Shown here: positions 6,638 to 58,458 of the stretch, one piece after another
Numbering within the stretch: the first letter of the stretch is position 1
How the letters are laid out: each line of letters opens with the position of its first letter
Assembly (NCBI RefSeq): GCF_032854445.1
Contig: NC_088295.1
Coordinates: 10,153,385-10,217,384 of the forward strand
Reading direction: 5' to 3'
Origin: Liolophura sinensis
Lineage: Eukaryota > Mollusca > Polyplacophora > Chitonida > Chitonidae
DNA: 64,000 nt
Program-made: the position numbers and the translations under genes
Notes under the pieces: model-generated
What the model was told of the DNA's origin: nothing
What the model saw: only the letters and a program-made list of their open reading frames with translations
The model's database searches: none

Positions 6638-7415
6638 TGGGGCGTGTAATTTGCTACTATTTATGCATTTACATGAACAATTAGAACAAAATCCTAATTG
6701 AGGTAAATTGACCAGAGGCCGTATTTCACCGGTTACGTGTAACCATTTACCAGCTATCACACAATAATCACTGCTCTGGTTTTTCTCTCTATGCTATACG
6801 TCTATCACAGTGTCGTCGCTGCTCTGGTTTTTCTTTATATGCTGTACGTCTATCAAACTGTTGTCGCAGGTCTGGTTTTTCTCAATATGCTGTACGTCTA
6901 TCACAGTGTCGTCGCTGCTCTGGTTTTTCTCTATATGCTGTACGTCTATCACAGTGTCGTCGCTGCTCTGGTTTTTCTCTCTATGCTATACGTCTATCAC
7001 AGTGTCGTCGCTGCTCTGGTTTTACTCTATATGCTTTACGTCTATCAAACTGTTGTCGCTGCTCTGGTTTTACTCTATATGCTGTACGTCTATCAAACTG
7101 TTGTCGCAGGTCTGGTGTTTCTCTATATGCTGTACGTCTATCACAGTGTCGTCGCTGCTCTGGTTTTTCTGTATATGCTGTACGTCTATCAAACTGTTGT
7201 CGCAGGTCTGGTGTTTCTCTATATTTTGACGTCTATCACAGTGTCGTCGCTGCTCTGGTTTTTCTCTATATGCTGTACGTCTATCAAACTGTTGTCGCTG
7301 CTCTGGTTTTTCTCTATATGCTGTACGTCTATCAAACTGTTGTCGCTGCTCTGGTTTTTCTCTATATGCTGTACGTCTATCAAACTGTTGTCGCTGGTGT
7401 TTCTCAGTATTTTGT
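6638..7415 (-). repeat. R3 element with an amplified internal 48-base minisatellite
   Basis: The reverse complement of 6638-6762 is the conserved R3 core. It runs directly into about 13 copies of a 48-base unit (6763-7410) built on GCTCTGGTTTTTCTCTATAT and GCTGTACGTCTATC. Two unit types alternate irregularly: one ends TCACAGTGTCGTCGCT, the other TCAAACTGTTGTCGC(T/AGG). Other R3 copies carry only one such unit next to the core (about 7630-7650, 37012-37035, 43485-43515), so the array was amplified inside the element. The long hydrophobic open frame here is a by-product of a unit length divisible by three. Confidence 0.8.
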
Positions 7416-7621
7416 CCGTCTTAACTATAAAGTTCATATTTAATATTCTGTTGGACAATTTTATAGGCTAAGTACGAAATTGAAGACTTGGCCTAGGTAA
7501 AATCTTAAAACAGTTTCGAACAACCTGACCCTGGAGAGAAGAACACATGTATTTTTAAACTAAGCAATTCACTGGCTATAAGCCCTATGTCACTATAATA
7601 ATACAAGGTGGGGAAAAAGCC

Positions 7622-37140: not shown

Positions 37141-37647
37141 TAGAAAAAGGCTTTTAATATACAGATTTCGTTAACGCTCATTGATCAATCCCACTGAGGG
37201 ACCGACACAAGTCAATATCCAGAATAACACTAACAACCAACCAGCAGACAGAGTTTGGGAGACGGAAGAGGAGAGAGCGAATTTACAGTCTGTATCCAAC
37301 CTGTTTCTATGAACGGTAAAATAACTTCTGTAGTTTAGACACAAGTTATGTGTTTTGTTTTGTGTTATTTCATAACCCGAAGAAACCTAAGCTGTCTACA
37401 AACATCTTTCAGCACTCTTACCGCGAACTCTGTATAGCTGTTCACCTAAAGACATGAGAATAAATCCTGTGGCCGGGTGTAGGGCAGAAATGCTTTCACA
37501 TTTAGTATCAGACAAGACTGGAATCCTCAAACATGTATATAATTCCTTAAAACTGTTATTACTCAATTTAATATAATCATTTTAATATAATCGAAGTTAA
37601 AACCATCTCTCGTCTCACCATGAGATCAAGTAAGAGAGGCGATAAAC

Positions 37648-37936
37648 AGCCCCTTGATTGCAAATATGCAAATGGTTGATAACAGGAAAATCCCATTGGG
37701 CAGATCGGCGATACAGGAGTGCGGCCAGTGGTATTCCTATTACAGTCCCTGGATTGCAAACATGCAAATGGTTGATAACAGGAAAATCCCATTGGGCAGA
37801 TCGGCGATACAGGAGTGCGGGCAGTGGTATTCCTATTACAGTCCCTTGATTGCAAACATGCAAATGGTTGATAACAGGAAAATCCCATTGGGCAGATCGG
37901 CGATACAGGAGTGCGGGCAGTGGTATTCCTATTACT
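37648..37936. repeat. Three tandem 96-base units
   Basis: GATTGCAAA(T/C)ATGCAAATGG recurs at 37656, 37752 and 37848, with nearly identical sequence between. The third unit ends early at TATTCCTATTAC. The unit length is divisible by three, which keeps frames open on both strands; I see no sign that it is translated. Confidence 0.9.
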
Positions 37937-37939
37937 CTA

Positions 37940-38690
37940 TGTACCTGTGTAGCAAAGAAAAGAGATGCCTGGTGTTAAGATGTACACGCTATAGTGTCTG
38001 CATGGACGTTGTGTCGTTAAGCAACATAGTCCTGCTTAATTCATACAAGAGTATAATGTGTTAAATTGGAAATTCAAAAATTTGTTTCTGTTATCTGATA
38101 GAGTATTTGCCTTTGAGGGTTGTTTCATGCCATTTAGAATTTAATTTCCATTGCATTTGAGAGTAGGTTGCAAACGTATGAAGGCTCTTTTCCAGGATCA
38201 AAAGTTATCTATACAATGCAGCATCCTCGAAGCTTCTGTTATTTGGCCTTCTCAGATGATGAGACACCACCCTGAGTAATCTCCCTTTAACCTTACATGA
38301 AGCCGCTGAATGCACGCCATCCTGACCCAGATATTTGTCCCTGCAATATCATATACAGAAAGTAAAGCTACCCTAAAGTTTGAAAAATAAAAAAAAACAC
38401 AGACACGTTCGATAAAACCAATACTCGGACCTTAAATTTCTCACAATGAAACATTCTGAAAAGTCAAGAAAACTTTTAACATTTTTGGTATTTATATATT
38501 CACAAGCTCATGAATTCTAAATATGGATTTTCATCCTTTTCGCGGATGTATTAGTTGACTGACTAAAACATAAATGTAATATTTGTTTTGCACGACCAGA
38601 AAAATGGCTCTTCTAAAAGAGTTGAGGATTTATACCAAAATTCTGCACATTGTTTTGTTTAGTACAAAATCCACATAATGATATACTCTA
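37940..38690. other. Non-coding sequence
   Basis: No supportable feature. Confidence 0.45.
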
Positions 38691-38694
38691 GATA

Positions 38695-39645
38695 TGGTCT
38701 ATTTCCGACGCCTCCTATACACATTGCTTCATTTAGAGCACCATCCATAGAGTAACATACCTGGAATATTGTCAACTTCCAATTCCACCTATACACATTG
38801 CTTTATTTAGAGCACCATCCATGGAGTCACACAACTGGAATATTGTCAACTTCCATTGGCACCTATACACATTGATTTATTTAGAGCACCATCCATGGAG
38901 TCACACAACTGGAATATTGTCAACTTCCAATTCCACCTGTACACATTGCTTCATTTAGACCACCATCCATGGAGTCACACACCTGGAATATTGTCAACTT
39001 CCATTGCCACCTATACACATTGATTTATTTAGAGCACCATCCATGGAGTCACACACCTGGAATATTGTCAACTTCCATTGCCACCTATACACATTGATTT
39101 ATTTAGAGCAGTATCCATGGAGTTAAACTACTGGATATTATCTGTTTCCCAGGCCTCCCAAACACGCTGCATTATTTAGAACAGTATCCATAGAGCTATA
39201 CTACTGGACATTGTCTGTTTTCCAGGCCTCCCATACACGCTACATGATTTAGGAAAGTATCCATAGAGCTATACTACTGGATATTATCTGTTTCCCAGGC
39301 CTCCCAAACACGCTGCATTATTTAGAACAGTATCCATAGAGCTATACTACTGGACATTGTCTGTTTTCCAGGCTTCCCAAACACGCTTCATGATTTAGGA
39401 AAGTATCCATAGAGCTATACTACTGGATATTATCTGTTTTCCAGGCCTCCCAAACACGCTGCATTATTTAGCGCAGTATCCATAGAGCTATACTACTGGA
39501 CATTGTCTGTTTTCCAGGCCTCCCATACACGCTACATGATTTAGGAAAGTATCCATGGAGCTATACTACTGAATATTCTCTCATTTCCAGGCCTCCCATA
39601 CACGCTGCAATGTTGAGAACAGTGACATTGTCTGTTTTCAAGGCC
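38695..39645. repeat. Minisatellite with two related unit families
   Basis: The left half (to about 39115) has six units of about 74 bases with ACACATTGATTTATTTAGAG and GGAATATTGTCAACTTCCA. The right half has about seven units of similar length with CACGCTGCATTATTTAGAAC and GGACATTGTCTGTTTTCCAG. Both share the ATTTAG and CATCCATGGAG or TATCCATAGAG positions, so they descend from one unit. Confidence 0.85.
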
Positions 39646-40424
39646 TCATAACTGAAGGTTTCATTTTATTTGTGGTAAATTAGGTTTGTTATTTCCATAT
39701 CCATCGACCTGTTAAACTAAATATAGTTGCAGTCATTATAGTTAAGTATCAAAACAATATGTGCATACTCTGGTATATTTTTGGTGTCAGACGAGAAGCA
39801 AATATCCTCAAATCTAACTGAATGACCTTAAACTCTAAAATTTACTGCGGATTTGTAATAAATGAGATTTAACCCGAACGAGAGTAAAGTTCTGATGGAC
39901 TCGTCATCTAACAGCTGGGAGACTGACCTGTCACCATCCTCGAAAAGCGGAAGTTAGCAATTCTAGTCTCATCCTGACCTAGATGGCGGTATATGACCTC
40001 ATATATACAGCTACATCACGTGGAAATGAAATCATGCAACCTGGTTATATATATTAGCCACTTTTGTTTTTATTTCAAGCGAAAGACCCTGATTTTCGGC
40101 TTTTATTTACGAGAATTCAGATGCCCAGAAAATATATTGTGTATATGCTCTCTATGGACCATTGTTTAGTAAACGAAGCATTAACGAAACGTAAAAGGCG
40201 TAGCTCTTTGTAAGCATTAAGGAAGATACTACGCAATACAGTAATCAATTTCACTATAGGCAAAGGATTGCTTTCGTGTTATTATTATATTTTTTTTGGA
40301 AAATTACGTTGTGAAATATGAGTTTAAGAATAGGATATCGAAGCAGCCTCGTTGAAGAAAGGTTTTGTTTCCATGCATGAAATATTTTTATAAGATTTTT
40401 TATTTCAAGTATTATGAGTATATT

Positions 40425-45000: not shown

Positions 45001-48000
45001 ACAAATTTTTCACAATTTAACCTTTTAGGGCGATAAACTGGAATTGTGATCCAGGGTCAACTTTGGCCATAACTCTCTTCATGGAAATGCAGCCGGAAGA
45101 ACATGTTATTGCTGTAGCGTACAGCGTGTCTGTTCGTGTAGGGTCTACTCTGTTCTTTGGTTATGCAAGCTGAGGCCTTGTGACTGTAATGCGTTTCATT
45201 TTTACAGAACATCGAACCTAGTGGAAGCTTTGAGATTCTGTTTGTGAGGTACGGCCACTCGTCAGGGAAAGGCTCTAATGGGAATTTCTGTGAGTCCTTC
45301 TCGTCGTGGATCCGACCCACAAGTGAATGTGATCCCTGGTTCCGAGTTTGTGTGGAGGCATTGCCCAAAAGGTAAAGATAACACATGCGCAATTGGTGGA
45401 ATTGACGCAGCGCTGAAGGCTGAAGGGGCACTGATAGGATAATACTGCCAGACCGACATTATGAATTGTTGATACACTATAGATTCCTGCAATGTTAGTT
45501 GCACCTATTTAAAATGATATCAGAATTTTCTTTTGGATAGAACTGAAAACTTTTTGTTAAGTGTTACCACCCACCACGCTGGAGGTTACTTAGGTGAAAA
45601 AATGTTATGACCTCAGTTTCAGCAAGAACAGCTCAAAACAATATTAGTGATGAAGCTTGAGAAAGGTGCAAGCTGACTGTGGTGGTATGACATGGTACCA
45701 GGCGAAAGTTAGAGATATATATTTCTGGGGTTGAAGTTGGCAAGCTTACTACATAAATACTAAGGAAACGAATGTGGTCCTATATAACTTATAGTTGGTG
45801 CGTTCGAAGCTTTTTGTGGTCACCACGTCTTTATGATTGCTAATAATACTAACCATGTAGCACCAAGAGCTGTTATCATCGATGACTTTACTGTATCTCA
45901 ACCGTACAGTTTGCATATAACATGTTTATGTATGATTTACTCTGAAAAAATAATAAATAAATTAAAAAATAAAATCTAATTACTACAGGTCTTTAACGTC
46001 GAACGTTAAAATATTTCACTTGTACACCTGCATGATAAATCCTTGGTTCTAAGCCCAGTCAGCATTCCTGACCTCATGAGTAAAGCTCTAATGGGCTCCC
46101 GCCATATTCCGTTATACCATCTGACCAGCGAGTGTGTTCATCAGCCTGCACAAATGTTGGACAAATTACCACCTGATGCAATGGAATGCCACATACTCTC
46201 AATGTTGCTTAAAGGCTGTGCACTTTTTTCTGCCACACACAGCACAGCAAAACCATGTGGACTGTTGAACAAAATTACTGGCGCCCTTCAAAATACCCTT
46301 CATGCCTCTTTCGGCAGGACCATTGGGGGAGTAGCTAATCCAATGCGTGTTCCATCAACCAAAGTAGGGGTAAGACCAACTCAAGTTGGAAATCTCTAAA
46401 AAAGAAAGAACGAAATCAGTATCTAGATTTTATTAATCTTTCGTCAGTAATAGGATATGTACGTCTTTTTAACGCATTACTAGTCAAAACTCTTTGCAAG
46501 TTGTAAGAAATACGCAGATAAAAGTGAAAATCCTATCCAGCCGCAGAATAAGCATATCGTTGGAGGGTTACTGTGTTGAAGAAATTATAAATCGGACTGT
46601 AGATATTTACGCAGATATCTTCAGAACATTTATATCTTTCATGCTTTGTCTTCAGGCTGGCATCCGAATCAAGATTACCGTGTACGACGAAGATGACAAC
46701 AATGACGATCATATAGATGACCTAGAGAAGTACATTTATTTCCCAGCTCCCGGTGACCACCAAATCACACTGCAAAATAGAGTGACGTGAGTAAAAGTCT
46801 CTTACAATCAACTTCAGTTTTTGTACTATTTATTTATTTATTTGATTGGTGTTTTACGCCGTGCTCAAATATATTTCATTTATACGACGGCGACCAACAT
46901 TATGGTGGGTGGAAACCGGGCAGAGCCCGGGGGAAACCCACGACCATCCGCAGGTTGCTGAAGATCTTCCCACGTACGGCCGGAGAGGAAGCCAGCATGA
47001 GGTGGACTTGAACTCACAGCGACCACATTGGTGAAAGACTCCTGGGTCATTGCGCTGCGCTAGCGCGCTAACCAACTGAGCCACGGAGTCCCCCAGTTTT
47101 TGTACTAGGTGTTAGGTACTAGTTCACGTGTGCCGGATATCCCAGAATAAATTATGATTTTACGCGGTTAACTTTAAATAGAAGAATATGAAAAATGGAA
47201 GTATACAATTACCCAGTAACTGTAAATGCTGCACTTTGTACTGATGGTGTAATGTATGCTACCCTATCGTCTCTCTGACCCTGCAGACTGACCATCAAGG
47301 TGACCTTCATCTGTGACCCGGGCTGGAGTGGCCACAGCTGTTCTGTGTATGACTACTGTCGCGACACGACATGTCACAATGGTGGCTCTTGCACATCACT
47401 GAGCAGAACAGCAATATGTAAATGTGTGCCGGGCTTTACAGGTGAGTTAGACGTCAAACCAACTAAGCTCTTATATACGCCACGATAAATGGCTGTAATG
47501 TTGCGTTGCCAAAGTGCATGGCGTTAAGCCGTAATCGTTCATACCAACTATGGTTCCATAACAAATTTGCTTTTGTCGGGATTATTTCTGTTGTATCAAA
47601 ATACATTCGTGGTAGAGTATATTATGCTTCGTGACGTCATTCCTTCAACCCCGTCGGGAGATCCCGGGATCAACCTCGGGTCGGGTCATACCAAAAACTT
47701 TAAATATGGTACTTGTAACTGCCTCTCTTGGCGCTCAGCACTGAGAGGTTAGAGCAAGGAAACAGGACTGGTTGACCCGGTGTCAGTATAATGTGACTGA
47801 GTGGGGTGTCATGTCTTGTGTCTTCGGCATGATACTTCAGTGGCGGCCGTACTTTGGCGCCATGGACTCGCCCTGCCACAAGAAAACACCGTATATGTAC
47901 ACATATCAAATGACTTCTGGGGCCTCCGTGGCTCAGTCGGTTAGCGCGCTAGCGCAGCGTAATGACCCAGAAGCCTCTCACCAATGCGGTCGCTGTGAGT

Positions 48001-51000
48001 TCAAGACCAGCTCATGCTGCCTTCCTCTCCGGCCGTACGTGGGAAGGTTTGCCAGCAACCTGCGGATGGTCGTGGGTTTCCCCCGGGCTCTGCCCGGTTT
48101 CCACCCACCATAATGCTGGCCGCCGTCGTATAAGTGAAATATTCTTGAGTACGGCGTAAAACACCAATCAAAAAAAAAAAAAAAAAAAAAAATCAAATGA
48201 CTTCTCGTCCTCAGAAAACTGCTAAGTACGACGTTAAACCCCAAGCATTCTCAAGCATTCATTCTTCTTTGGTATTGCCTTTAAACTACAGTTTCCTAAG
48301 GCCCCCAGTGGCCAGTAAGGAAGTTAAGGAGCCTGCAGTGGTCAACAGATAGCTGTGAAAGCAATTTTTTTGCCAGCACAGCCCAAATTATAGCGCACTA
48401 AGCTGGCTCCGCTTTCCCAGTATGTTCACATATGACGTCATTTCTGAATATTCAGGAACACTGACAGAAAAAATATATGAACTAGAGAGGTTATTACAAA
48501 ATGTAAAACATGCCTTAAAATGAAATTTACTGTCATCTCTTTGGTATATCATAATAAGAATTATTAAAGGCATAGTCATGATTTTTGTGGTACCCTTCCA
48601 CATATAATTTAGCACACTGTCCACTATTCCTTAGGTAAGTTTGTTGGCTTAACCCATCTACATCAACTCTTTCCGAATTGCCCGGCTATAAATGCTTTTC
48701 TTCGATGCGCTCAGAAAGGAAGGGCGGTGGGTTAGCTTTATACATTAAGAGCACCATAGACTCATGCGCGGTAAGGGAAAACCTAAGTTTTTTAAAAGAT
48801 GATGGCAGCTGTGAGACTTTTTTTCGTGGAAATTGAGCTTTCTGGCAAGGTCTACCTCATTGGAATCGTGTATTCCCCTCCTGGTACGGATATAGCTGAA
48901 TTTAATGCCCATCTATTATCAACCGTACAAATCTGCCAAAGAGAAAAAAAAAATTACGTAATCATGGGTGACATTAACATTAATCTCCTTAAAACTGACC
49001 ACCAACAACAGTCTAAAAATTTCCTAGAAATCATGACCTCACTCTTTTTCTTTCCACAAATAACCAAGCCGACAATGGTCCAATCCTGCTCTGACACTTT
49101 AATCGACAATATTTTTACTAATTTTCTCCTAACTGACATCACAGATCATTTTCCCACATTCCATATTCTAAAAGTCAAATATAAACAAAAATCACACGTA
49201 CACGAAACAAGCTTTCGCAAATTCCCCATTGCTAACAATGACACATTTTCCCGTCGAATTCAAAATGTAAACTGGGATTGTGTTTATCAAGAAACTACTG
49301 ATGTAAACATAGCAATGGCTGTATTCCTTGAAAAGTTTAGTTCACTGTATAATGAATATTTCCCATTAACTACGATCAGCGTAAATAAACAAAAAATAAT
49401 CAAACCGTGGGTAACCAACAGCATCCTGATATCGATCAATGAGAAAAATAGACTCTGCCGTCAGCAACTAATAAATAAAACTGATCGAGCGCGAAAACAA
49501 TATAGAATGTACAGAAATCGGATAAATTCCACTCTTCGCGTGGCAAGAAAAAAATATTTTGAAAACAAGTTGAACAAGTATAACAATGTCATCAAAAACA
49601 CGTGGAAAACTTTAAACGAATTGATGAACTAGAAAAACAAGGATCACTTACCCTCGTGTTTTGAAATTGAGGGGCGCAAGTCAAGAGATAAAACTGAAAT
49701 AGCTGAGGGTTTCAAAGAATATTTTAGCTCTTTGGCCTCAAATGTTGAGTCTAGTATACCTTCAGTGGAGAAAATTTTTTCAGATTATCTTGGAAATCCT
49801 AATGAAAGTATTTTTTCCTTTCTTACCAACAGACATCTTTTAATGCTCTAAAATCCTTGAAATCTAATGTGCTACTGGGCTAGATGGTATCCATATATCT
49901 ATTGTGAAACTTGTTTTTGACTATATATCGGCTCCTCTAGCCCACATCATTAATCTGTCCTTCTCATCAGGCGTCGTCCCCGATATTCTAAAAAGAGCAA
50001 AAGTGTTCCCGGTTTACAAAGCTGGTAGACACGACCTATTAGAAAACTATAGACCAATATCTATTCTTCCATGTCTAAGCAAAATATTAGAAAAACTTGC
50101 TACCAATTCTATCATTGATTATCTCGAGTCATATAACATAATTGATATTAATCAGCGTGGTTTCAGAAGGAATCATTCCACCCAGTACGCCGCCTACTCA
50201 TTATATGACAAACTTATAACCGCTAGAGAGTACAAGAATTATACTGTGGCTACCTTTCTGACTTATCAAAGGCTTTTGACACTGTCAATCATAACATTCT
50301 TCTTTTAAAAGTAGATATCTATGGCTTCCGGGACCTGTCAAAGGACTGACTGGGTAGCTACCTGTCAAACCGTACACAATCTACATACTTCAGCTTTGTC
50401 TTGTTTGAATCCACAGACGTTACATGTGGTGTGCCTCAAGGGTCGATTCTGGGACCAATCCTATTCTTATTATATATAAATACCAAAAGTAACAGACCTC
50501 CTAAATATAATACTTTTTGCAGACGATACTACCACAACTTATTCCTGTGAAAATGTTGATGAGGCTATTATCTTACGAGCTAGGAAAGCTGAACACTTGG
50601 TTCTGTGCAAACCGCCTTTCTCTATATGCTAACAAAACAAAGTATATGTTAGACATAGACGAGTAGACATAGACCACAAATTGCTGTTGCTTGACTATTT
50701 CTGGGACAGAGGTTAAACGAGTCAGGGAGTTCAAATTTCTTGGTTTTATGTTTAACGGAAAGCTAAATTGGACGCCACACATAGATTGTATTCGTAAAAA
50801 GGTCTCGAGGAATCTAGGTATACTAAACAACATTAAGGACTCGGTGAATAAAAAAACGCTTTTTATCCTTTATTATTCTTGATCCACCCTTACTTTTCGT
50901 ACGGGAATATTTGTGGGCAAACACATATAAGTCTCACTGGCAACCTCTGCAAATATTACAAAAACGTGCTATTCCAGCTGTGACTATGTCTAGGTCCCTA

Positions 51001-54000
51001 GAACACACAAATCCACTTTTTTGTACTCTTAAAATTCTGCCCTTATCTGAATTAAACATTTTCTTTACTAATATGATAATGCAGACATTTTTTTATCACC
51101 CCGAAGTATTACCACCTAGCTTTAATAATTACATTATTAAAAACGTTGACGCACGTCACTATGGCACAACACGTTGGCCATTAGATCTGTATCGAATCCC
51201 CTTTAAAAGCAATCTGTCCTATCGTTCACCTAAAGTAGCTGGCCCTCGGGAATGGAACAAAACTCCCTTCATACTTACGCAATATTCAGTCAATTTCCTT
51301 ATTCAAATCTGAACTGAAATCGTATATGCTGCAGCACTTCTTCTCCGTTTAGTCTAACACACAATAATATACTTAATAGTCGTTACTATAAGCACCTGTA
51401 TATATTATTTACTTATTTACTTTGTTCACAGGAACAGATAATCACGATGTTTATGATCACCACAGTTCACATGCCTGTATTATATATGCAAATTGTATGT
51501 TAATGGGATAGAGCAAGCTCCATGGAGCTTTATTTCCGCCAGTATGTTTCTGCATGTTTATAAGAATCTTATGTTTCGTATATTATATTGGCGAATAAAC
51601 AAACAAACAAGGTGAAAACGTCATTAAAACGTGTGAACTAAAATGTTTGTTTAGTCTTAATCTAGCTTTTGGAGACATTCCCAGTATTGTCTGCCATTTC
51701 CCAAATATTAGACAAATCGTTTTGAGTTCAATTCCTTGACGAAACCACCGCCGAATACTCACAAAAGGCAATGAGGGGGAATCGAAAAAAGATTTCTAGC
51801 ATTACAGTAGAAGCTTGAAGGCAACGTCTTGATAGGATTTCACGATTAAAGAGTGTAGCATTGATTCTCTTGTGTTTTTACAGGACCTGATTGCCAGACA
51901 GACATTGATGAGTGCAGGTCTGACCCATGCCAGAATGGTGGTGTGTGCCAACACGAAATAAATACGTACACGTGCCATTGTCAGCCGGGGTACACGGGGG
52001 ACAACTGTCAGCTGAATATCAACGATTGTGCGAATCATCAGTGTGAGAACGGTGCGACGTGTATAGATCGCATACAGCGCTACGATTGCTCTTGTGCGCA
52101 TGGTTTTTCTGGGCCACGGTGTGAGATCAATGTTGACGACTGTGCTGGGGTATATTGTGATCACGGTGGAACGTGTGTGGACGAAGTGGATGGATACACG
52201 TGCACTTGCACACCTGGATATACCGGGCTGCATTGTGGAGTTAATATAGACGAATGTCCAGGCGTCGAATGTCAACACGGTGGAACTTGTATTGACAGAG
52301 TAAACGGATACACGTGCACTTGCACACCTGGATATACCGGGCTGCATTGTGGAGTTAATATAGACGACTGTTCAGGCGTCGAATGTCAACACGGTGGAAG
52401 TTGTATTGACAGAGTAAACGGATATAGGTGTATATGCACACCTGGATATACCGGGCTGCATTGTGGAGTTAATATAGACGAATGTTCAGGCGTTGAATGT
52501 CAACACGGTGGAACTTGTATTGACAGAGTAAACGAATATAGGTGTACATGCACACCTGGATATACCGGGCTGCATTGTGGAGTTAATATAGACGAATGTT
52601 CAGGCGTCAAATGTCAACACGGTGGAACTTGTATTGACAAAATAATCGGATACACGTGTGCATGCACACCTGGATATACCGGGCTGCATTGTAAAGTTAA
52701 TATAGACGAATGTTCAGGCGTCGAATGTCAACACGGTGGAAGTTGTATTGACAAAATAAACGGATACACGTGTACATGCACACCTGGATATACCGGGCTG
52801 CATTGTGATGTTAATATAGACGAATGTTGGGGCGTCGAATGTCAACACGGTGGAACTTGTATTGACAAAGTAAACGGATACACGTGTACATGCATACCTG
52901 GATATACCGGGCTGCATTGTGGAGTTAATATAGACGAATGTTCAGGCATCGAATGTCAACACGGTGGAACTTGTATTGACAGAGTGAACGGATATAGGTG
53001 TATATGTACACCTGGATACACCGGGCCTTATTGTGAAGTTAACATCAACGAATGTTTAGGTGTTGAATGTCAACACGGTGGAACGTGCATGGACGGAATA
53101 AATGGATATAGATGTATATGCAGCGAAGGGTTTAGCGGAACACTTTGTGAAAGAAATATAGATGATTGTATTGGAATCAGATGTGAGAATGGCGGCACGT
53201 GTGTTGACGGAATAGATGGATACACGTGTCTGTGCACGGGTGCCTTCAAGGGCGTCAACTGTGAGGACAACGTCGATGACTGTGTGGGAATCAGCTGCCA
53301 ACATGGTGGAACGTGCCAAGACTTAACCAATGGATACATGTGTTTATGCTCGGCAGGCTATAGCGGGACACACTGCGAAGTGAACATAGACGATTGCGCG
53401 GTGGTTATTTGCAAAAATCGTGGAACGTGTGAAGACGGAATAGATGGATACCAGTGCTTATGTGGTAAGGGATTTCGGGGTACACATTGTGAGATTAATG
53501 TCAATGACTGCGATAGAATTATTTGCCATAATGGAGGCACTTGCGTGGACGGTGTTGACGAATATACATGCTTATGTGCGTATGGTTTCAACGGGGAAAA
53601 CTGTGAGACAACATTTGGCCGATGTACTGACACGTACTGTCAGAATGGGGGACAGTGTACTGACAGCCCCGATTCTGTTTATTGCCAATGTCCAAATGGG
53701 TACGATGGCATCCACTGTGAGATAAGTGTGAATGACATCGCTGCTGTTGTGTGTCAAAACGGAGGGACAGTACAAGGCAACAGTTCACATCACTGTCTGT
53801 GTCCACCAGGATTTACCGGATCGCATTGTGAGACTGTGGAGCAGAGTACAGGGCCAAGACCTCCATCGTATCACAATAACACCGATATGGGCAAGCTCCT
53901 GCCCTTGCCTCATACCACCACAATGGCTGATGTCACAGTAAATGACACGACATCTTCGCCAATATCTCCAGGTGAGCATTATAGCCAGACGCAGTGACAG

Positions 54001-57000
54001 CTAGTGAAATATTTGGTTGTATATGTGTATGCCGTGGTATTTACGTCATAGGACGACGAGGCGTTATTAGGCATGTATACATATACTGTGTCTTTTTGTG
54101 GCAGGGCGAGTCACTGGAGTATCATGCGAAAGGTCCCACACATGACACTCCACCCAGACACATCACACTGACACTGGGTCAACCAGTCCTGTTTTCTGGA
54201 TCTAACCTCTCAGTGCTGAGCGCCAAGCGAGGCAGAAACAAGTACCGCACCATTTTAAAAATCTTTCGTTATGACCCGTCCCGGGTTTGATCCAAGGCCT
54301 CCCGACTTAGGCCACCGAGGAGGAAGATGGAATGATAAAATGTTGAATGATAAAAAGTCCTTTTGACTTTAAACACATCCACAGTGTACCATATCTGAAT
54401 GTGTTCTCAAAAATGCCGACTGAGGACAATCCAAATTTCTAACCTTTATCAATATATTTTATAGACAGTCCGCCATGTTATCTGGGTCAAGAAGCACAAA
54501 ACGTTTTGCGTTTTCTGTTATTTTTTTTTGAAAAATATTCCATTTTGCCAACAGTTTGCATGACTGAACATCCAGGGTGTCTTTTCTGCAAAAGGTGCCC
54601 CAGATATTGTTCGCTAAAGACCATATGCCATATCGTTGTGCAACATAGACAAATTAATGGCTATCCACCACCTGGTCGACGGGGGCGTGGCCGAGAAGGT
54701 AGCACGCCAGCGCGCCGCAATGTCCCAGAAGCTTGCTATGTCACTATGAGTTCAAGTCCAGCTCATGCTGGCTATATGGGGAAGGTCTGCAGCAATCTGC
54801 GGATGGTCGTGGGTTTCCCCCGAGCTCTGCCCGGTTTCTTTCCACCATAATCCTGGCCACCGTCGATAAGTGAAGTATTTTTGAGTACGGCGTAAAACAC
54901 CAATCAAATAAATAAAATAACATAAATAAGTCAAAGGTCTGGAGGAAGAAACTCAGGTTACGATCCAAGAAGCCAAACGTTAAAACCCCAAAAGAGTTTC
55001 CTCCATACATAAAGTTAACATCTCCTCCTGGACGTAGTGGTCCCATTGTTAAAGTGCATGTACTGTATTAAACTGTATTGGTCAACTGGATATATATTTA
55101 AACAATTTCTTATGTTGCGACACTTATCACAGTGTCTTCAACAGAGAATGGGGTGAAAGTACAGACACAGTATATATATATGTATACTAACAATCAGTGA
55201 GTAAAAATTATAACAAGGGCATAAACCTTTTAAAAATAGGGTGGGTAGTGTCCAATTAGAGCTCAAGGAGGAACCAGTTTAAGTTTTCTGAGTGTTGTTT
55301 AGTTTGTTGATGTTTTTGTTCCATGTGGGTGAAAGCCTAAAACGCAGGTCGCCATTCCTGTTCAGGGAGGGGTTTCTAGCTTTCACCCATATGGCTTGCT
55401 TCACATCTCCCTCAAACTATCGGCTTTCTTTGTCTAGAACATAAACTTTTGTCTTCTTTATTTTATTTTATTTTTGTTTAATGTACTCTGCCTGGATGGG
55501 TCAAAGTATTTATTCCTACATGTACTGTAAGTTTTACCAGCGTGTTGCATGGGTAAACAACTTGATAATTCGTGGAGAAGAGCAATATTTTCACCAGCTG
55601 GAAGGGCCAGTGGAAATAATCATCTTCGAGACGAAATGTCAGACACAACACGCTGGTATCACGAATTCATCACTATGAAGAGAAATATGGACAACTCTCC
55701 TTGAATTAATATCGGTTCTTAACCAAAGCGTGCTATGTTTTCAAGCCCGCGACCCCGTAGGTATACAGAAACAAACATCCAACGCGTGAGACTGTATTCC
55801 TCGCCTGTTCGGCGAATGTGGTAGCTTATCCAAGGTGGATTTAACATTCAGAGGCCTGGAGAGGAAGCCGATATGAGCTGGATGTGAACTGACAGTGACC
55901 GTATTGTTGACACCTTTTAAAGTATATTATAATTTCATGCCATGATGAGCACTTGTTGTGTTTTTTTACTTTCTTTCTTTCTTTTACCTTTGTGCAGATG
56001 TAAGCGTCAACTGGACTATGACCGTGGAAGGGAAGGTCCCGACACTGACGGGAGTACAGGATTACATATATGACGAGTTGATAAATACAGGAGGACTGTC
56101 ACCTGCTTCCCTCCATGTCCAGGTCATGGGTACAGCCCTGGCTCATGGCACTGACGGGTGAGAGTAGAATGAACAACAGTTAGCCATGTTTTAATGTGTG
56201 GTTTTAATTTTGCTTCCTCGTGGTGATGAATATATCAAGTCTTTGTGTATATTGTTTCGTATATTTGCATATTTCTGCATTTCTGCTGAAATAGCCGAAT
56301 ATATTTTAGCCTAATATTTGCTGTTTCCAAATCATAGAAGATGGGAATATGCCGATTACTCACACGATGACATTAAACTGGAGTGTTACAACGTGTTACA
56401 AAACCTACTGAGTTTATAAAAACTGACTCTGTTTCACTGGTTTTATTGCTGTTGATAATCCTTGTTAATGCACTCTTTATGCAGACTCAACACACTTCTC
56501 TTCCGCGTATAGTACCAATAATTCAGATTTTCTTCAGTCTCACACAACAAGAACAACTGCCTTTTCTCTGAAAAAATCAGAGAAATTACGAGAATATTTT
56601 GCTGCTCTGTGCTGTTACTGAATATTTACCATTCATCTACACATTGCTCTGTTGCTTGTCACAGAATATATGTAGTTACTGTATTACTTCCTTTATAGGG
56701 TCCTGCTAACAGCTGTTAATGTCAGAGTGTCGGTCAGTAGCACCAGCCTAACAGCCGCCGAACTTCTCCACCTGTTAGACAGCCTCTCCCTCGGTGTAGC
56801 CAGTACCATGAGCCGGAAACTGTACACAGGCGATCTCATGCCCCAGGCAGGACACCAACAAGCCGAAAATGTCTCCAAGAAGCAGGTACATGATTGATTC
56901 GGCTTGTGTCCTCCAGAATGTTTTAATATACCGAACTCGCAATGTTTACAACAGCCTCAGCTTACTATTTATCGTGATCCAGGCGACATGAGTAACATGG

Positions 57001-58458
57001 GTATCTTGTTTATGCCCATATTAGCCCAAATTTATGTCCACCTGAAGCTTTCTATCATCAATAAGCGTAGGCCTACATGAAGACATCCGCCTTGTCCAAC
57101 CTCCAACAAAGCAATACTGTATGTCTTGACACAGGATCTAGGCTTTTCAGGATAGACCTGAAACATGGCACCTCTGCCAACAGTCGTGATCGCTTCCATG
57201 CAAGTATAGCAATGGGCAACCATTCTGTAGGTGTATCCTCTCTCCAAGGAGGCCCCATTTTCTGAATTGAACCGAAAAACACCTTTGTCAATGCTTAAGC
57301 AATTTCCAACATGTCCATACCAAGTACCTAGAATCCGTCAGTATAGGAGGCTTAACACTATTCAAATAGATAAATAAATAAATAAACAAATAAATAAATA
57401 AACAAATGAATAAATAAACAAATAAATAAATACAAACCATATAGCTGAAGACTAAAATGGCCTGTTAACTGGCAACAAACAAACGAATAATGACATAAAT
57501 GACACAAGGTAACAACACCCAAAGCGCATACCCGTACTAGTGTTGCATAAATTACTTTCTCGTGTTTGTACCTCACATTGCTGGCTATGGATCTTTGACA
57601 AGTCCCCCATCCATACCTGATGGCGATCCACCTCCAGAAGTAATTACTGCCTCCTATGTTCAACGTTTAGATGTACACTGTGCCAACTGTTATTAGGTTC
57701 CTGCGCAACAGTTTCAAAATATAGTCACTATTTATAGTTTACCACCTCTCAGGATACAAAGAGTAAAGGTACATTTATCCAAGGCGCCGTGACCGTGATC
57801 AACCCTGACTCTTAACTGTCGTTGTTAAATATCTTAATAAGCACCAACAGACAGTGTATGTTCTCTACATTGCCCTCTGGATTTTCTACCACTGCAGGAC
57901 TCGTCCAGCATCTACATCGCCATTGGTATTGTTGGTGGCCTGGTCGCTCTGGCTGTTGTCGGTATCTTAATCATGATGGCCAAGAGAAGGTAATTTACCT
58001 GTATTTTCTGTGGAAAAATAATCGAAACTTAAGTTTAACAATGAACAGGTGAATATTTAATTGACAGTAGGTCAATATTTAATTTATTAACAGATTGATT
58101 TTTACATAGTGTTTGAACTAACGGATTTAAATCTTACATCTGTAACAGAGAATTTCCATCTGTGAAACAAATGGATTTAAACACCACTGAATCATGAAAT
58201 CAGTCCTTCGAATAATCTGTCATTTTGTTGTTGTTTTTGTATTTGTTTAACAGAGCTAATAAGAAAGAGCTTTTGGAAGTTCCGAAGTCAGATACAGTTT
58301 CCATTAACTCGGCCGCTATAGGGGACTTCATGGAACAGCCATTTGTAATATTCCATCAGAACAGATGTTACCAGTTCTCAGACATGGAATCTCCACCCAT
58401 CGACTTTTTGCCACCTGCCGAGTGTGGGCTGACCGATGAAGAGGTTTCCACCTCATGA
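41999..58458 (+). CDS. Jagged/Serrate-like Notch ligand with reduced DSL domain (whole gene span, spliced)
   Basis: A type I membrane protein rebuilt from nine exons: 41999-42055, 45208-45371, 46656-46786, 47287-47441, 51884-53971, 55998-56157, 56699-56885, 57898-57989, 58254-58458. The last seven are phase-consistent and encode 1005 residues; the first two add about 73. Order: signal peptide, MNNL-like N-terminus of Notch ligands, DSL remnant, 18 EGF-like repeats, Jagged-like juxtamembrane region, one TM helix, short tail. Known of the family: such proteins bind Notch on neighbouring cells and need Mindbomb/Neuralized-driven endocytosis to activate it. Odd points: the DSL module, the main receptor contact, is cut to two cysteines; there is no von Willebrand C region; the tail lacks a hydrophobic C-terminal PDZ motif. 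It may therefore act as a weak, cis-inhibitory or non-canonical ligand; this is inference. Exons 2 and 3 (as found) do not join in phase, so one exon is probably unfound. Confidence 0.8.
42527..42628 (+). mobile_element. SINE family 2, 3' portion in intron 1
   Basis: TCCGGCCGTACGTGGGAAGG, ATGGTCGTGGGTTTCCTCCG and GGCTCTGCCCGGTTTCCTCC followed by ATAATAAATAAATA match the family body. It contains CGTGGGAA at 42541-42548. Confidence 0.8.
43206..43217 (+). repeat. Homopolymer of 12 C in intron 1
   Basis: Directly visible run; likely to be length-unstable or mis-sized in the assembly. Confidence 0.95.
43419..43518 (-). repeat. Interspersed repeat R3, partial copy in intron 1
   Basis: AGAGGCCGTATTTCACCAGG, ATGTGACCATTTACCAACTA and one 48-base-type unit GCTGCTCTGGTTTTACTGTC match the reverse R3 copy at 6706-6800. 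Confidence 0.7.
43519..45207 (+). other. Rest of intron 1
   Basis: No supportable exon or repeat. An open frame at 44068-44256 has no recognisable motif and no splice sites that fit the gene. Confidence 0.45.
45208..45371 (+). CDS. Exon 2: first half of MNNL (Notch-ligand N-terminal) domain
   Basis: The 54 codons contain SGSFEILFVRYGH, GNFCESF and CDPWFRVCVEALPK. The pattern, small residue-G-x-F-E-(I/L) at the start and C-D-x-(W/F/Y)-F-(R/K)-V-C-(V/L) at the end, is typical of the MNNL C2-like domain of Delta and Jagged. Acceptor TTTTTACAG precedes it and donor GTAAAG follows at 45372. It ends in phase 2, whereas the next recognised exon starts in phase 0. Confidence 0.8.
45372..46655 (+). 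other. Intron, probably containing one unfound exon
   Basis: An MNNL domain normally continues with a segment around a C-x-F-G motif and a W-P motif; neither is visible here in any forward frame. The flanking exons also differ in phase. An open frame at 46043-46399 has no recognisable motif and I do not call it an exon. Confidence 0.45.
46656..46786 (+). CDS. Exon: second half of MNNL domain
   Basis: It encodes AGIRIKITVYDEDDNNDDHI, then DDLEKYIYFPAPGDHQITLQ and NRV, ending in phase 2. It corresponds to the last strands of the ligand C2 domain: the hydrophobic-alternating strand followed by an acidic loop, where vertebrate ligands have an (L/I)-x-(V/I)-E-A-W-x-(D/S) strand. The acceptor CTTTGTCTTCAG and the donor GTGAGTAA are both strong. 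A family-2 SINE is inserted about 40 bases after the donor. Confidence 0.8.
46829..47093 (-). mobile_element. SINE family 2, full-length, with target-site duplication
   Basis: It is complete from tail to tRNA-like head (reverse complement of GGCTCAGTTGGTTAGCGCGC with a box A pattern, and GTGAGTTCAAGTCC as box B). A perfect 14-base target-site duplication, CAGTTTTTGTACTA, flanks it at 46815-46828 and 47094-47107. It lies in reverse orientation in the intron right after the second MNNL exon. The perfect duplication suggests a fairly young insertion. Confidence 0.95.
47287..47441 (+). CDS. Exon: DSL remnant and first EGF repeat
   Basis: It starts TLTIKVTFICDPGWSGHSC and continues with SVYDYCRDTTCHNGGSC. 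The strand before the first cysteine and the ten-residue C-to-C spacing match the start of a DSL domain. The remaining four DSL cysteines are absent; the chain runs straight into a regular EGF repeat (spacings 4, 5, 8, 1, 8). Acceptor CTCTCTGACCCTGCAG; donor GTGAGT; ends in phase 1, matching the next exon. CDPGWSGHSC could equally be read as the last third of an EGF repeat. Confidence 0.85.
47484..47545 (+). mobile_element. SINE family 3, 3' fragment
   Basis: CACGATAAATGGCTGTAATG, GCATGGCGTTAAGCCGTAAT and CGTTCAT repeat the order seen at 37-92. Confidence 0.5.
47600..48260 (+). mobile_element. SINE family 1, interrupted by a family-2 SINE
   Basis: The family-1 body (CCTCTCTTGGCGCTCAGCAC, GACTGGTTGACCCGGTGTCA) ends with AAGTACGACGTTAAACCCCA and an ATTC-type tail. 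It matches 63201-63565 (forward) and 54045-54325 (reverse). The family-2 SINE at 47919-48191 splits it. The tRNA-like head is worn; its left edge is approximate. Confidence 0.8.
47919..48191 (+). mobile_element. SINE family 2, full-length, nested in a family-1 SINE
   Basis: The tRNA-derived head (box A TGGCTCAGTCGG, box B GTGAGTTCAAGACC) is followed by the body with CGTGGGAA at 48038-48045 and an A-rich tail of about 23 bases. A perfect 14-base duplication, ATCAAATGACTTCT, lies at 47905-47918 and 48192-48205. Because its tail is a pure A run and not (AAAT)n and its body is close to consensus, it appears young. Confidence 0.95.
48655..51610 (+). pseudogene. Decayed non-LTR retrotransposon (LINE; endonuclease and reverse transcriptase)
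   Basis: The 5' part encodes an APE-type endonuclease C-terminus: ELPGYKCFSS, RKGGGLALYI, VYSPPGTDI, GDINI and TDHFPT (the usual S-D-H is T-D-H). After the 277-codon frame ending at 49632 come reverse-transcriptase motifs: YKAGRHDLLENYRPIS, QRGFRRNHST, DLSKAFDTVNHNILL (another frame), GVPQGSILGP (about 50427-50460) and FADDT (about 50514-50530). At least four frameshifts or stops break it. It ends in (AAAC)n at about 51594-51610. The motifs point to the Jockey/CR1 side of LINEs; clade not decided. It sits in sense orientation in the intron before the large EGF exon and looks 5'-truncated. Confidence 0.9.
51884..53971 (+). CDS. Exon: EGF repeats 2-18 and Ser/Thr/Pro-rich linker
   Basis: One 2088-base exon carries the end of EGF1 and 17 further repeats of about 38 residues. 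Repeats 2-16 have the calcium-binding pattern (D/N)-x-(D/N)-(E/D)-C with a D and Y/F between Cys3 and Cys4. Fifteen of 18 repeats in the protein have a POFUT1-type O-fucose site (C-x4-S/T-C before Cys3); only EGF2 (CRSDPC) has a POGLUT1-type O-glucose site. The Asp/Asn hydroxylation pattern is frequent. EGF5-EGF11 are nearly identical, also in DNA. EGF18 lacks Cys1 (ATC, 53737-53739) and Cys3 (GTA, 53770-53772). The end is rich in S, T and P with N-glycosylation sites (NNT, NDT). Donor GTGAGC at 53972, phase 1. Confidence 0.95.
54045..54325 (-). mobile_element. SINE family 1, reverse
   Basis: The reverse complement reads a worn tRNA-like head (GGTGGCCTAAGTCGGGAGGC, then TTGGATCAAACCCGGG), CTCGCTTGGCGCTCAGCACT, GACTGGTTGACCCAGTGTCA and GCCCTGCCACAAAAAGACAC. 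Same order as the copies at 47.6 and 63.2 kb. It begins about 75 bases after the end of the large EGF exon. Confidence 0.85.
54678..54925 (+). mobile_element. SINE family 2, near-full-length
   Basis: A diverged head (GGGGCGTGGCCGAGAAGGTA) and ATGAGTTCAAGTCCAGCTCA are followed by the family body. It ends with GGCGTAAAACACCAATCAAA and (AAAT)n. The CGTGGGAA motif is lost here (TATGGGGAAGG). Confidence 0.85.
54926..55997 (+). other. Intron sequence
   Basis: Contains a short reverse family-2 SINE head remnant at about 55850-55912 (GGAGAGGAAGCCGATATGAG). No exon seen. Confidence 0.5.
55998..56157 (+). CDS. Exon: juxtamembrane region, part 1
   Basis: It encodes DVSVNWTMTVEGKVPTLTGV, QDYIYDELINTGG, LSPASLHVQVMG and TALAHGTDG. 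The alternation strand, helix with D-E-L, strand resembles the region between EGF repeats and membrane in Jagged/Serrate (x-F-T-F-N ... C-S-E-L ... Y-S-I-Y-I). Acceptor CCTTTGTGCAG, donor GTGAGA, start phase 1, end phase 2; both match the neighbours. One N-glycosylation site, NWT. Confidence 0.8.
56699..56885 (+). CDS. Exon: juxtamembrane region, part 2
   Basis: It encodes VLLTAVNVRVSVSSTSLTAA followed by ELLHLLDSLSLG, MSRKLYTGDLMPQ and ENVSKKQ. A strand and a leucine-rich helix fit the second half of the Jagged-like juxtamembrane domain. Acceptor CTTCCTTTATAG; donor GTACAT at 56886; ends in phase 0. NVS is an N-glycosylation site. Confidence 0.75.
57366..57432. repeat. AAAT/AAAC simple repeat in intron
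   Basis: An uninterrupted mix of AAATAAAT and AAACAAAT units, most likely the remnant of a SINE tail. Confidence 0.8.
57898..57989 (+). CDS. Exon: transmembrane helix
   Basis: It encodes DSSS followed by the hydrophobic stretch IYIAIGIVGGLVALAVVGIL and IMM, then the stop-transfer residues AKRR. It is a single-pass type I helix with a GxxxG-like GIVGG motif. Acceptor TTTTCTACCACTGCAG; donor GTAATT; ends in phase 2. Confidence 0.9.
58254..58458 (+). CDS. Exon: cytoplasmic tail and stop
   Basis: It encodes a tail of 67 residues: RANKKELLEVPKSD, then DFMEQPFVIFHQNRCYQFSD, ESPPIDFLPPAECG and DEEVSTS, ending TGA at 58456-58458. Several lysines next to the membrane could accept ubiquitin, as in Notch ligands. 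The C-terminus STS has no hydrophobic last residue, so a PDZ-binding motif as in Jagged1 or Delta is absent. The tail is shorter than in vertebrate Jagged. Confidence 0.85.

What the first reader, a model, noticed from the sequence alone, without database searches (positions are those of the whole stretch)
47287..51930. Notch-ligand-like protein whose DSL domain is reduced to two cysteines
Seen: MNNL-like exons lead into VTFICDPGWSGHSC and then directly into a regular EGF repeat inside the same uninterrupted exon, so the missing four DSL cysteines are not merely an unfound exon. Known: the DSL module is a main Notch contact of Delta and Jagged. Inference: the protein could be a cis-inhibitor, a decoy, or a ligand with another way of binding.
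Basis: partly seen in the sequence, partly recalled or inferred. Interest (0 to 1): 0.72.

Follow-up and report, generated by a model that had tools for sequence, protein, structure and literature searches.

The report
Notch-ligand relative with collapsed DSL domain
An intact-looking gene for a cell-surface protein of the Notch-ligand family has lost nearly all of the module that grips Notch, while relatives in the same genome still have it, so it has probably left Notch activation for another task.

Summary
Exon 47287-47441 carries the last strand of an MNNL (C2) domain, one two-cysteine loop CDPGWSGHSC, then a regular EGF repeat, with no room for the other four DSL cysteines. I extended the gene to nine exons (45208-58458): a four-cysteine MNNL, the collapsed DSL, 17 EGF repeats plus one degenerate, a membrane-proximal region, one transmembrane helix and a short tail, without internal stops; no signal-peptide exon was found. 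A profile from three paralogs ranks exons A, C and D first to third of 3,496 open segments and B tied fourth, collinear. Four divergent MNNL paralogs of this genome keep C1-C5 or all of the DSL here, so by parsimony the loss is derived. The loop is chimeric: interior like the DSL C5-C6 loop, flanks like C1-C2. Published passages say these loops superimpose and that the deleted face serves trans-activation and cis-inhibition. A DSL-based cis-inhibitor is therefore less likely than a membrane protein that no longer uses the canonical Notch site. Expression, orthologs and binding are untested. New variant of a known kind, moderate interest.

The parts
45208..45371 (+). Exon A: N-terminal half of the MNNL (C2) domain, three of its four cysteines
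   Evidence: Best of 3,496 window segments with the paralog profile; acceptor ag, donor gt, phase 0 in and 2 out
46243..46369 (+). Exon B: middle of MNNL (CGLLNKITG...IGGVANPM), fourth cysteine
   Evidence: Splice signals and phase fit; 38 residues align with paralog L014 without a gap between the two; weak alone in the scan, E 4.2 with three paralogs, 0.47 with five rows
46656..46786 (+). Exon C: C2 strands with Asp-rich loop VYDEDDNNDDHIDD
   Evidence: two Asp invariant in the four aligned genes
47287..47441 (+). Exon D: last C2 strand, collapsed DSL (CDPGWSGHSC, 47312-47341), start of EGF1
51884..53971 (+). Exon E: end of EGF1, EGF2-17, one degenerate EGF, Ser/Thr-rich stretch
   Evidence: Pfam EGF E 4e-111; 17 full EGF patterns over exons D and E
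55998..56157 (+). Exon F: membrane-proximal region, first half
   Evidence: Splice frame; no Pfam match over cut-off in the spliced C-terminal part
56699..56885 (+). Exon G: membrane-proximal region, second half
57898..57989 (+). Exon H: transmembrane helix (IAIGIVGGLVALAVVGILI)
   Evidence: Highest hydropathy 19-mer of the protein, 2.87
58254..58458 (+). Exon I: short cytoplasmic tail and stop codon
   Evidence: Frame and stop
48796..50305 (+). Broken non-LTR retroelement pieces inside intron D-E; not part of the protein
   Evidence: Sub-cut-off Pfam matches to endonuclease and RVT_1 in two separate open stretches

Best explanation
This is a divergent Delta/Jagged-family type I membrane protein whose DSL core was deleted, leaving one loop that could form a single disulphide. 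Shown from sequence: MNNL ancestry, absence of the DSL core, an intact frame through a transmembrane helix and tail, and full or nearly full DSL in related paralogs. Inferred: deletion or conversion between the two similar DSL loops; a C2 domain that still binds calcium or phospholipid; an EGF rod that holds it away from the cell; and a protein that does not activate Notch through the EGF11/12 site. It most likely acts in adhesion or binds another receptor, rather than as a trans ligand or a DSL-based cis-inhibitor.
For: Spliced MNNL fits the paralog profile (65.5 bits; best of 2,000 shuffles 8.0), exons collinear in an unselected scan. All four MNNL cysteines present. D108 and D110 are invariant in window and three paralogs; by my reading of the JAG1 alignment, numbering recalled, they fall on JAG1 D140/D144, linked to calcium and liposome binding in PMC5538765 (passages). 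DSL absent. Window and four DSL-bearing paralogs are split from three canonical ligands (100/99). Loop interior 12.5 with the C5-C6 model, 1.5 with C1-C2; residue after C1 (3.5 against -2.2) and the three residues after the loop (8.1 against -2.6) favour C1-C2. EGF repeats: median dN/dS 0.33 over the 59 of 91 pairs that could be computed. PMC3415683 (passages): the C1-C2 loop superimposes on C5-C6; DSL residues F199, R201, R203, F207 serve cis and trans contacts. Precedent: DLK1.
Against: No transcript, ortholog or binding data. No signal-peptide exon found. Pfam MNNL stays under its cut-off, the genome search with Pfam MNNL does not list this gene, and the window MNNL alone finds no PDB chain. 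C2 and EGFs also contact Notch in canonical ligands, so a residual Notch role is open. DLL3, a non-activating member, did not bind liposomes (PMC5538765), so a C2 does not guarantee lipid binding. Exon E passes Pfam cut-offs for Delta/Jagged-type EGF models PF21700 and PF21795. The seven youngest EGF repeats have dN/dS 0.56; this concerns EGFs only and repeats may convert one another.
Confidence: 0.6

Rival explanations
1. Notch antagonist (cis-inhibitor or decoy): it binds Notch through C2 site 1 and EGFs, or pairs with canonical ligands, and lowers signalling.
For: C2 contacts Notch EGF12 (site 1) in canonical ligands (PMC5538765 passages). DLL3 does not bind Notch in trans but shows cis-inhibition in vitro (PMC4391858, start of abstract in the listing). 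Membrane anchor and EGF rod are kept.
Against: DSL-face mutants lose cis-inhibition as well (PMC3415683 passages). EGF1 has regular spacing, not the short DOS type (DOS spacing partly recalled). For DLK1, long called a Notch inhibitor, no Notch binding was found.
Confidence: 0.2
2. Co-ligand: it acts together with a separate DSL-bearing protein, as proposed for OSM-11 and DSL proteins in nematodes.
For: Ten separate places in this genome hold DSL matches (12 matches). DOS proteins may act as Notch co-ligands (PMC3415683 passages).
Against: No short DOS-like EGF seen in EGF1-2 (by eye); no evidence of partnership.
Confidence: 0.07
3. Decaying gene: the DSL loss is an early step toward pseudogenisation.
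For: Long branch (2.16); no signal-peptide exon found; retroelement pieces in an intron; loss seen in this gene only among nine MNNL genes found.
Against: Eight introns with GT-AG ends and fitting phases, no internal stop in 1,102 codons, EGF dN/dS below 1.
Confidence: 0.1
4. Assembly error or polymorphic deletion that removed the DSL core from one haplotype.
For: Only one assembly was available.
Against: The loop residues are chimeric and the reading frame is exact, which a random collapse would rarely give (inference); a recent exact deletion is still possible.
Confidence: 0.03

Closest known systems
Delta/Jagged (canonical DSL ligands)
   Same: MNNL with four cysteines, EGF array, one transmembrane helix, short tail
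   Different: Six-cysteine DSL reduced to two; EGF1 of regular spacing; no Pfam DSL match
Lophotrochozoan Delta-like / DSL-like proteins (PMC5356439, PMC8166818; passages)
   Same: Divergent members of an expanded family; domain variation is common
   Different: The passages seen name loss of ATEV, EGF repeats or TM, and tandem DSL; none of them mentions MNNL with a collapsed DSL
DLL3
   Same: Family member reported not to activate Notch (passages and abstract)
   Different: Counted in the DSL family; this gene lost the DSL core (DLL3 sequence not compared here)
DLK1
   Same: EGF protein without DSL, reported to act outside Notch (passages)
   Different: Also lacks C2, which this gene keeps

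Membership tests
Canonical Delta/Jagged ligand | MNNL (C2) domain | tested here: met
   65.5 bits against a paralog profile and collinear exons; note Pfam gives only 19.1 bits, under its 22.5 cut-off
Canonical Delta/Jagged ligand | Six-cysteine DSL domain | tested here: not met
   Two cysteines; no DSL match at this locus
Canonical Delta/Jagged ligand | Nine or more EGF repeats (definition in PMC5356439) | tested here: met
   17 full repeats
Canonical Delta/Jagged ligand | Short DOS-type EGF1-2 | tested here: inconclusive
   EGF1 gaps 4-5-8-1-8 are regular and exon D is under the PF21700 cut-off, but exon E passes PF21700 and PF21795 elsewhere in the array; DOS spacing partly recalled
Canonical Delta/Jagged ligand | Signal peptide | tested here: inconclusive
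   No convincing exon in the window
Canonical Delta/Jagged ligand | Transmembrane helix and cytoplasmic tail | tested here: met
Canonical Delta/Jagged ligand | Binds and activates Notch | not testable with these tools
   Needs assay
Divergent MNNL-DSL-EGF group of this genome | Groups with divergent paralogs in sequence | tested here: met
   Split from three canonical ligands with support 100/99; order inside the group unresolved, rows partly incomplete
Divergent MNNL-DSL-EGF group of this genome | Same intron phases | tested here: inconclusive
   C2 exon starts in phase 0 in window, L013, L018 and ends in phase 2 in window and L018; DSL exon fits in L012, L018, L019. But these are candidate splice sites: L012 and L018 list a second acceptor in another phase, L013 two donors, and the only N-exon donor listed for L014 has phase 0, not 2
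DLK1-type | No C2 and no DSL | tested here: not met
   C2/MNNL is present

The most novel reading that the evidence does not exclude
A stable, lineage-specific class of ligand-derived proteins in which recombination between the two similar DSL loops removed the Notch face but kept the lipid-binding C2 and membrane anchor, turning a Notch ligand into a calcium-dependent membrane-bridging protein or a ligand of another receptor.
Probability: 0.25. Interest if true: 0.62.

Novelty: new variant of a known kind. Interest (0 to 1): 0.45.

Why it matters
Canonical ligands couple membrane binding by C2 to Notch binding by DSL (PMC5538765, passages). A natural protein that keeps one and has lost the other would let the two be separated experimentally, and would show how a Notch ligand can leave the pathway. 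The chimeric loop also bears on the published idea that DSL arose from truncated tandem EGF domains (PMC3415683, passages).

Tried and rejected
An EGF-rich cluster on C13 (5.38-5.41 Mb) matched the exon C-D query. On reading it looked like a long EGF / laminin-G-like protein, judged by eye to be unrelated. The best non-self match of that query (E 1.8e-5) is an EGF stretch 5.4 kb downstream of the canonical DSL at C8:21.59 Mb, so exon D's EGF1 by itself does not point to the divergent group. Of five non-self hits with the window MNNL, four are MNNL loci (E 0.7-5.6); the fifth, on C10, was noise on reading. Exon B was first read as 46318-46369 and replaced by 46243-46369. A missing DSL exon was rejected on exon logic and by the DSL scan. 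The C-terminal part found only the gene itself and two weak hits, not followed. Signal-peptide search failed. Whether the kept pair is C1-C2 or C5-C6 is unsettled: C..C alone favours C5-C6 (21.0 against 15.9), with the three following residues C1-C2 wins (23.9 against 18.5). The PDB search with alignment A1 finds Delta and Jagged (E down to 1.6e-25), but A1 holds three DSL-bearing paralogs; the window alone finds none. Rfam gave no match in the window. Structure prediction was not run: the MNNL spans several exons and the tool asks for sequence given letter for letter by the DNA. Paper searches bearing on MNNL without DSL showed no mollusc case among the rows listed (20 of 21, 25 of 25, 5 of 5, 30 of 44, 12 of 53); only open-licence papers are held. 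PMC6040629 (passages) reports choanoflagellates with one of the two domains but not both.
Full report
WHAT IS THERE. The window is part of a 609 Mb genome (G000, contig C1:10153385-10217384). Its repeats look mollusc-like to me; this is recalled, not tested. The whole model has nine exons (45208-45371, 46243-46369, 46656-46786, 47287-47441, 51884-53971, 55998-56157, 56699-56885, 57898-57989, 58254-58458). All eight introns have GT-AG ends and fitting phases, and the product is 1,102 codons from exon A to the stop without an internal stop. No signal-peptide exon was convincing.

IS IT MNNL? Exons C and D singly gave no Pfam MNNL match (A and B were not submitted singly). The spliced sequence gave 19.1 bits, under the curated 22.5, and the window MNNL alone found no PDB chain. 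The genome-wide Pfam MNNL search did not list it. The better test uses relatives: a profile from three divergent paralogs, without the window, scores the spliced domain at 65.5 bits, and the best of 2,000 shuffles at 8.0. Because I chose exon B with a paralog in view, I also scanned all 3,496 open segments of the window. Exons A, C and D are the three best; B shares fourth place (E 4.2) with an unrelated segment; with a five-row profile the four take ranks 1 to 4. All four lie in order along the profile. In the six-frame genome search, four of five non-self hits of the window MNNL are MNNL loci, each weak (E 0.7 to 5.6). All four MNNL cysteines are kept (residues 28, 41, 48 and 60 of the model).

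IS THE DSL GONE? A Pfam DSL search of the genome gave 12 matches at ten places, none at this locus. A DSL profile from eight DSL domains of this genome gave no window segment more than 9.8 bits; exon D's best domain scores 10.3, on the C5-C6 end of the profile, and does not stand out from two minus-strand segments. Six of six control loci gave 28.6-68.4 bits, three of them outside the profile. All seven Pfam MNNL matches have a DSL match on the same contig and strand, 2 to 64 kb downstream (that each pair is one gene is inferred). Adding C6:43.97 Mb, read by hand with MNNL and DSL, the window is the one of nine MNNL genes found without a DSL. Both genome searches score best candidates only, so the list is a lower bound.

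HOW DID IT ARISE? The C2 exon and the DSL exon of the window start in the same phases as candidate exons of L018 (both), L013 (C2) and L012 and L019 (DSL). Other candidate splice sites in other phases are listed for L012, L013 and L018, and the N exon of L014 has only a phase-0 donor, so the match of intron phases is suggestive, not settled. In three paralogs (L014, L018, L019) the DSL match ends near C5, as if an intron split the DSL there; the far exon was read only in L018 and, less surely, L019. In the window the strand before C1 and EGF1 share one exon. The remaining loop scores 12.5 for its interior with the C5-C6 model and 1.5 with C1-C2, but the residue after C1 and the three residues after the loop fit C1-C2; over all 13 positions C1-C2 leads, 23.9 to 18.5, and an EGF model gives 11.3. 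With 9 and 10 loops per model these are small samples, and one of ten C1-C2 controls (C6_16.47) was misassigned. A passage of PMC3415683 says that the C1-C2 loop superimposes on the C5-C6 loop. Deletion or conversion between these two loops is therefore a natural, though inferred, route. It removes C3-C4, where the Notch-contact residues listed there lie (by recalled numbering).

WHAT DOES IT DO? PMC3415683 (passages) reports that DSL-face mutants lose trans-activation and cis-inhibition. PMC5538765 (passages) describes C2 as lipid- and receptor-binding, with D140 and D144 of Jagged1 involved in calcium and liposome binding; it also reports that DLL3 did not bind liposomes. Two aspartates of the window C2 are invariant in the four aligned genes and fall on those positions by my reading. 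The EGF array has 17 full repeats, 15 of 17 with a calcium-binding-type linker (recalled pattern); a 114-base tandem array of 8.4 copies, 91% matches, lies inside it. Of 91 repeat pairs, 59 gave a usable dN/dS, median 0.33; 0.50 for the 26 pairs with dS under 0.5, 0.56 for the seven youngest repeats (20 of 21 pairs) and 0.15 for the outer repeats (5 of 15 pairs, saturated). Gene conversion between repeats could disturb these values. I infer a membrane protein that keeps C2 and spacer functions without the canonical Notch grip. DLK1 is a precedent for a protein filed as a Notch ligand that was found to act elsewhere (PMC12216052, passages); unlike it, this gene keeps the C2.

RELATIVES AND TREE. 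A tree of eight MNNL rows separates three canonical ligands from the window and four divergent paralogs (100/99). The order within the divergent group is unresolved, the window branch is long (2.16), three rows were incomplete and exon joins were made by eye. The highest identity to the window is 29% (C7:43.03 Mb). Exon D's EGF1 taken with exon C matches best, outside its own gene, an EGF stretch near the canonical ligand at C8:21.59 Mb (E 1.8e-5).

LIMITS. One genome, no transcripts, no orthologs, no binding data. Unfound paralogs, masked stretches and gaps in G000 are possible. Domain variation among lophotrochozoan Delta-like proteins is known (PMC8166818 and PMC5356439, passages), so this is a new variant rather than a new kind.

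Noticed in passing
L013 (G000:C7:8087500-8097000): A paralog with MNNL and a DSL that also carries two further DSL matches in one long EGF-containing open frame, so DSL modules multiply in one gene and vanish in another.
   Followed up: partly
window 52162-53122: Tandem array of about 8.4 copies of a 114-base EGF unit, 91% matches; copy number may vary between individuals.
   Followed up: partly
window 48796-50305: Broken non-LTR retroelement pieces (endonuclease and reverse transcriptase) in the intron that splits EGF1.
   Followed up: partly
window 6712-7471, 37624-38064 and 38737-39648: Open stretches that by eye look like tandem repeats; no domain search was made on them.
   Followed up: no
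L014, L018, L019: The DSL match ends near C5 in these paralogs, suggesting an intron inside the DSL domain.
   Followed up: partly
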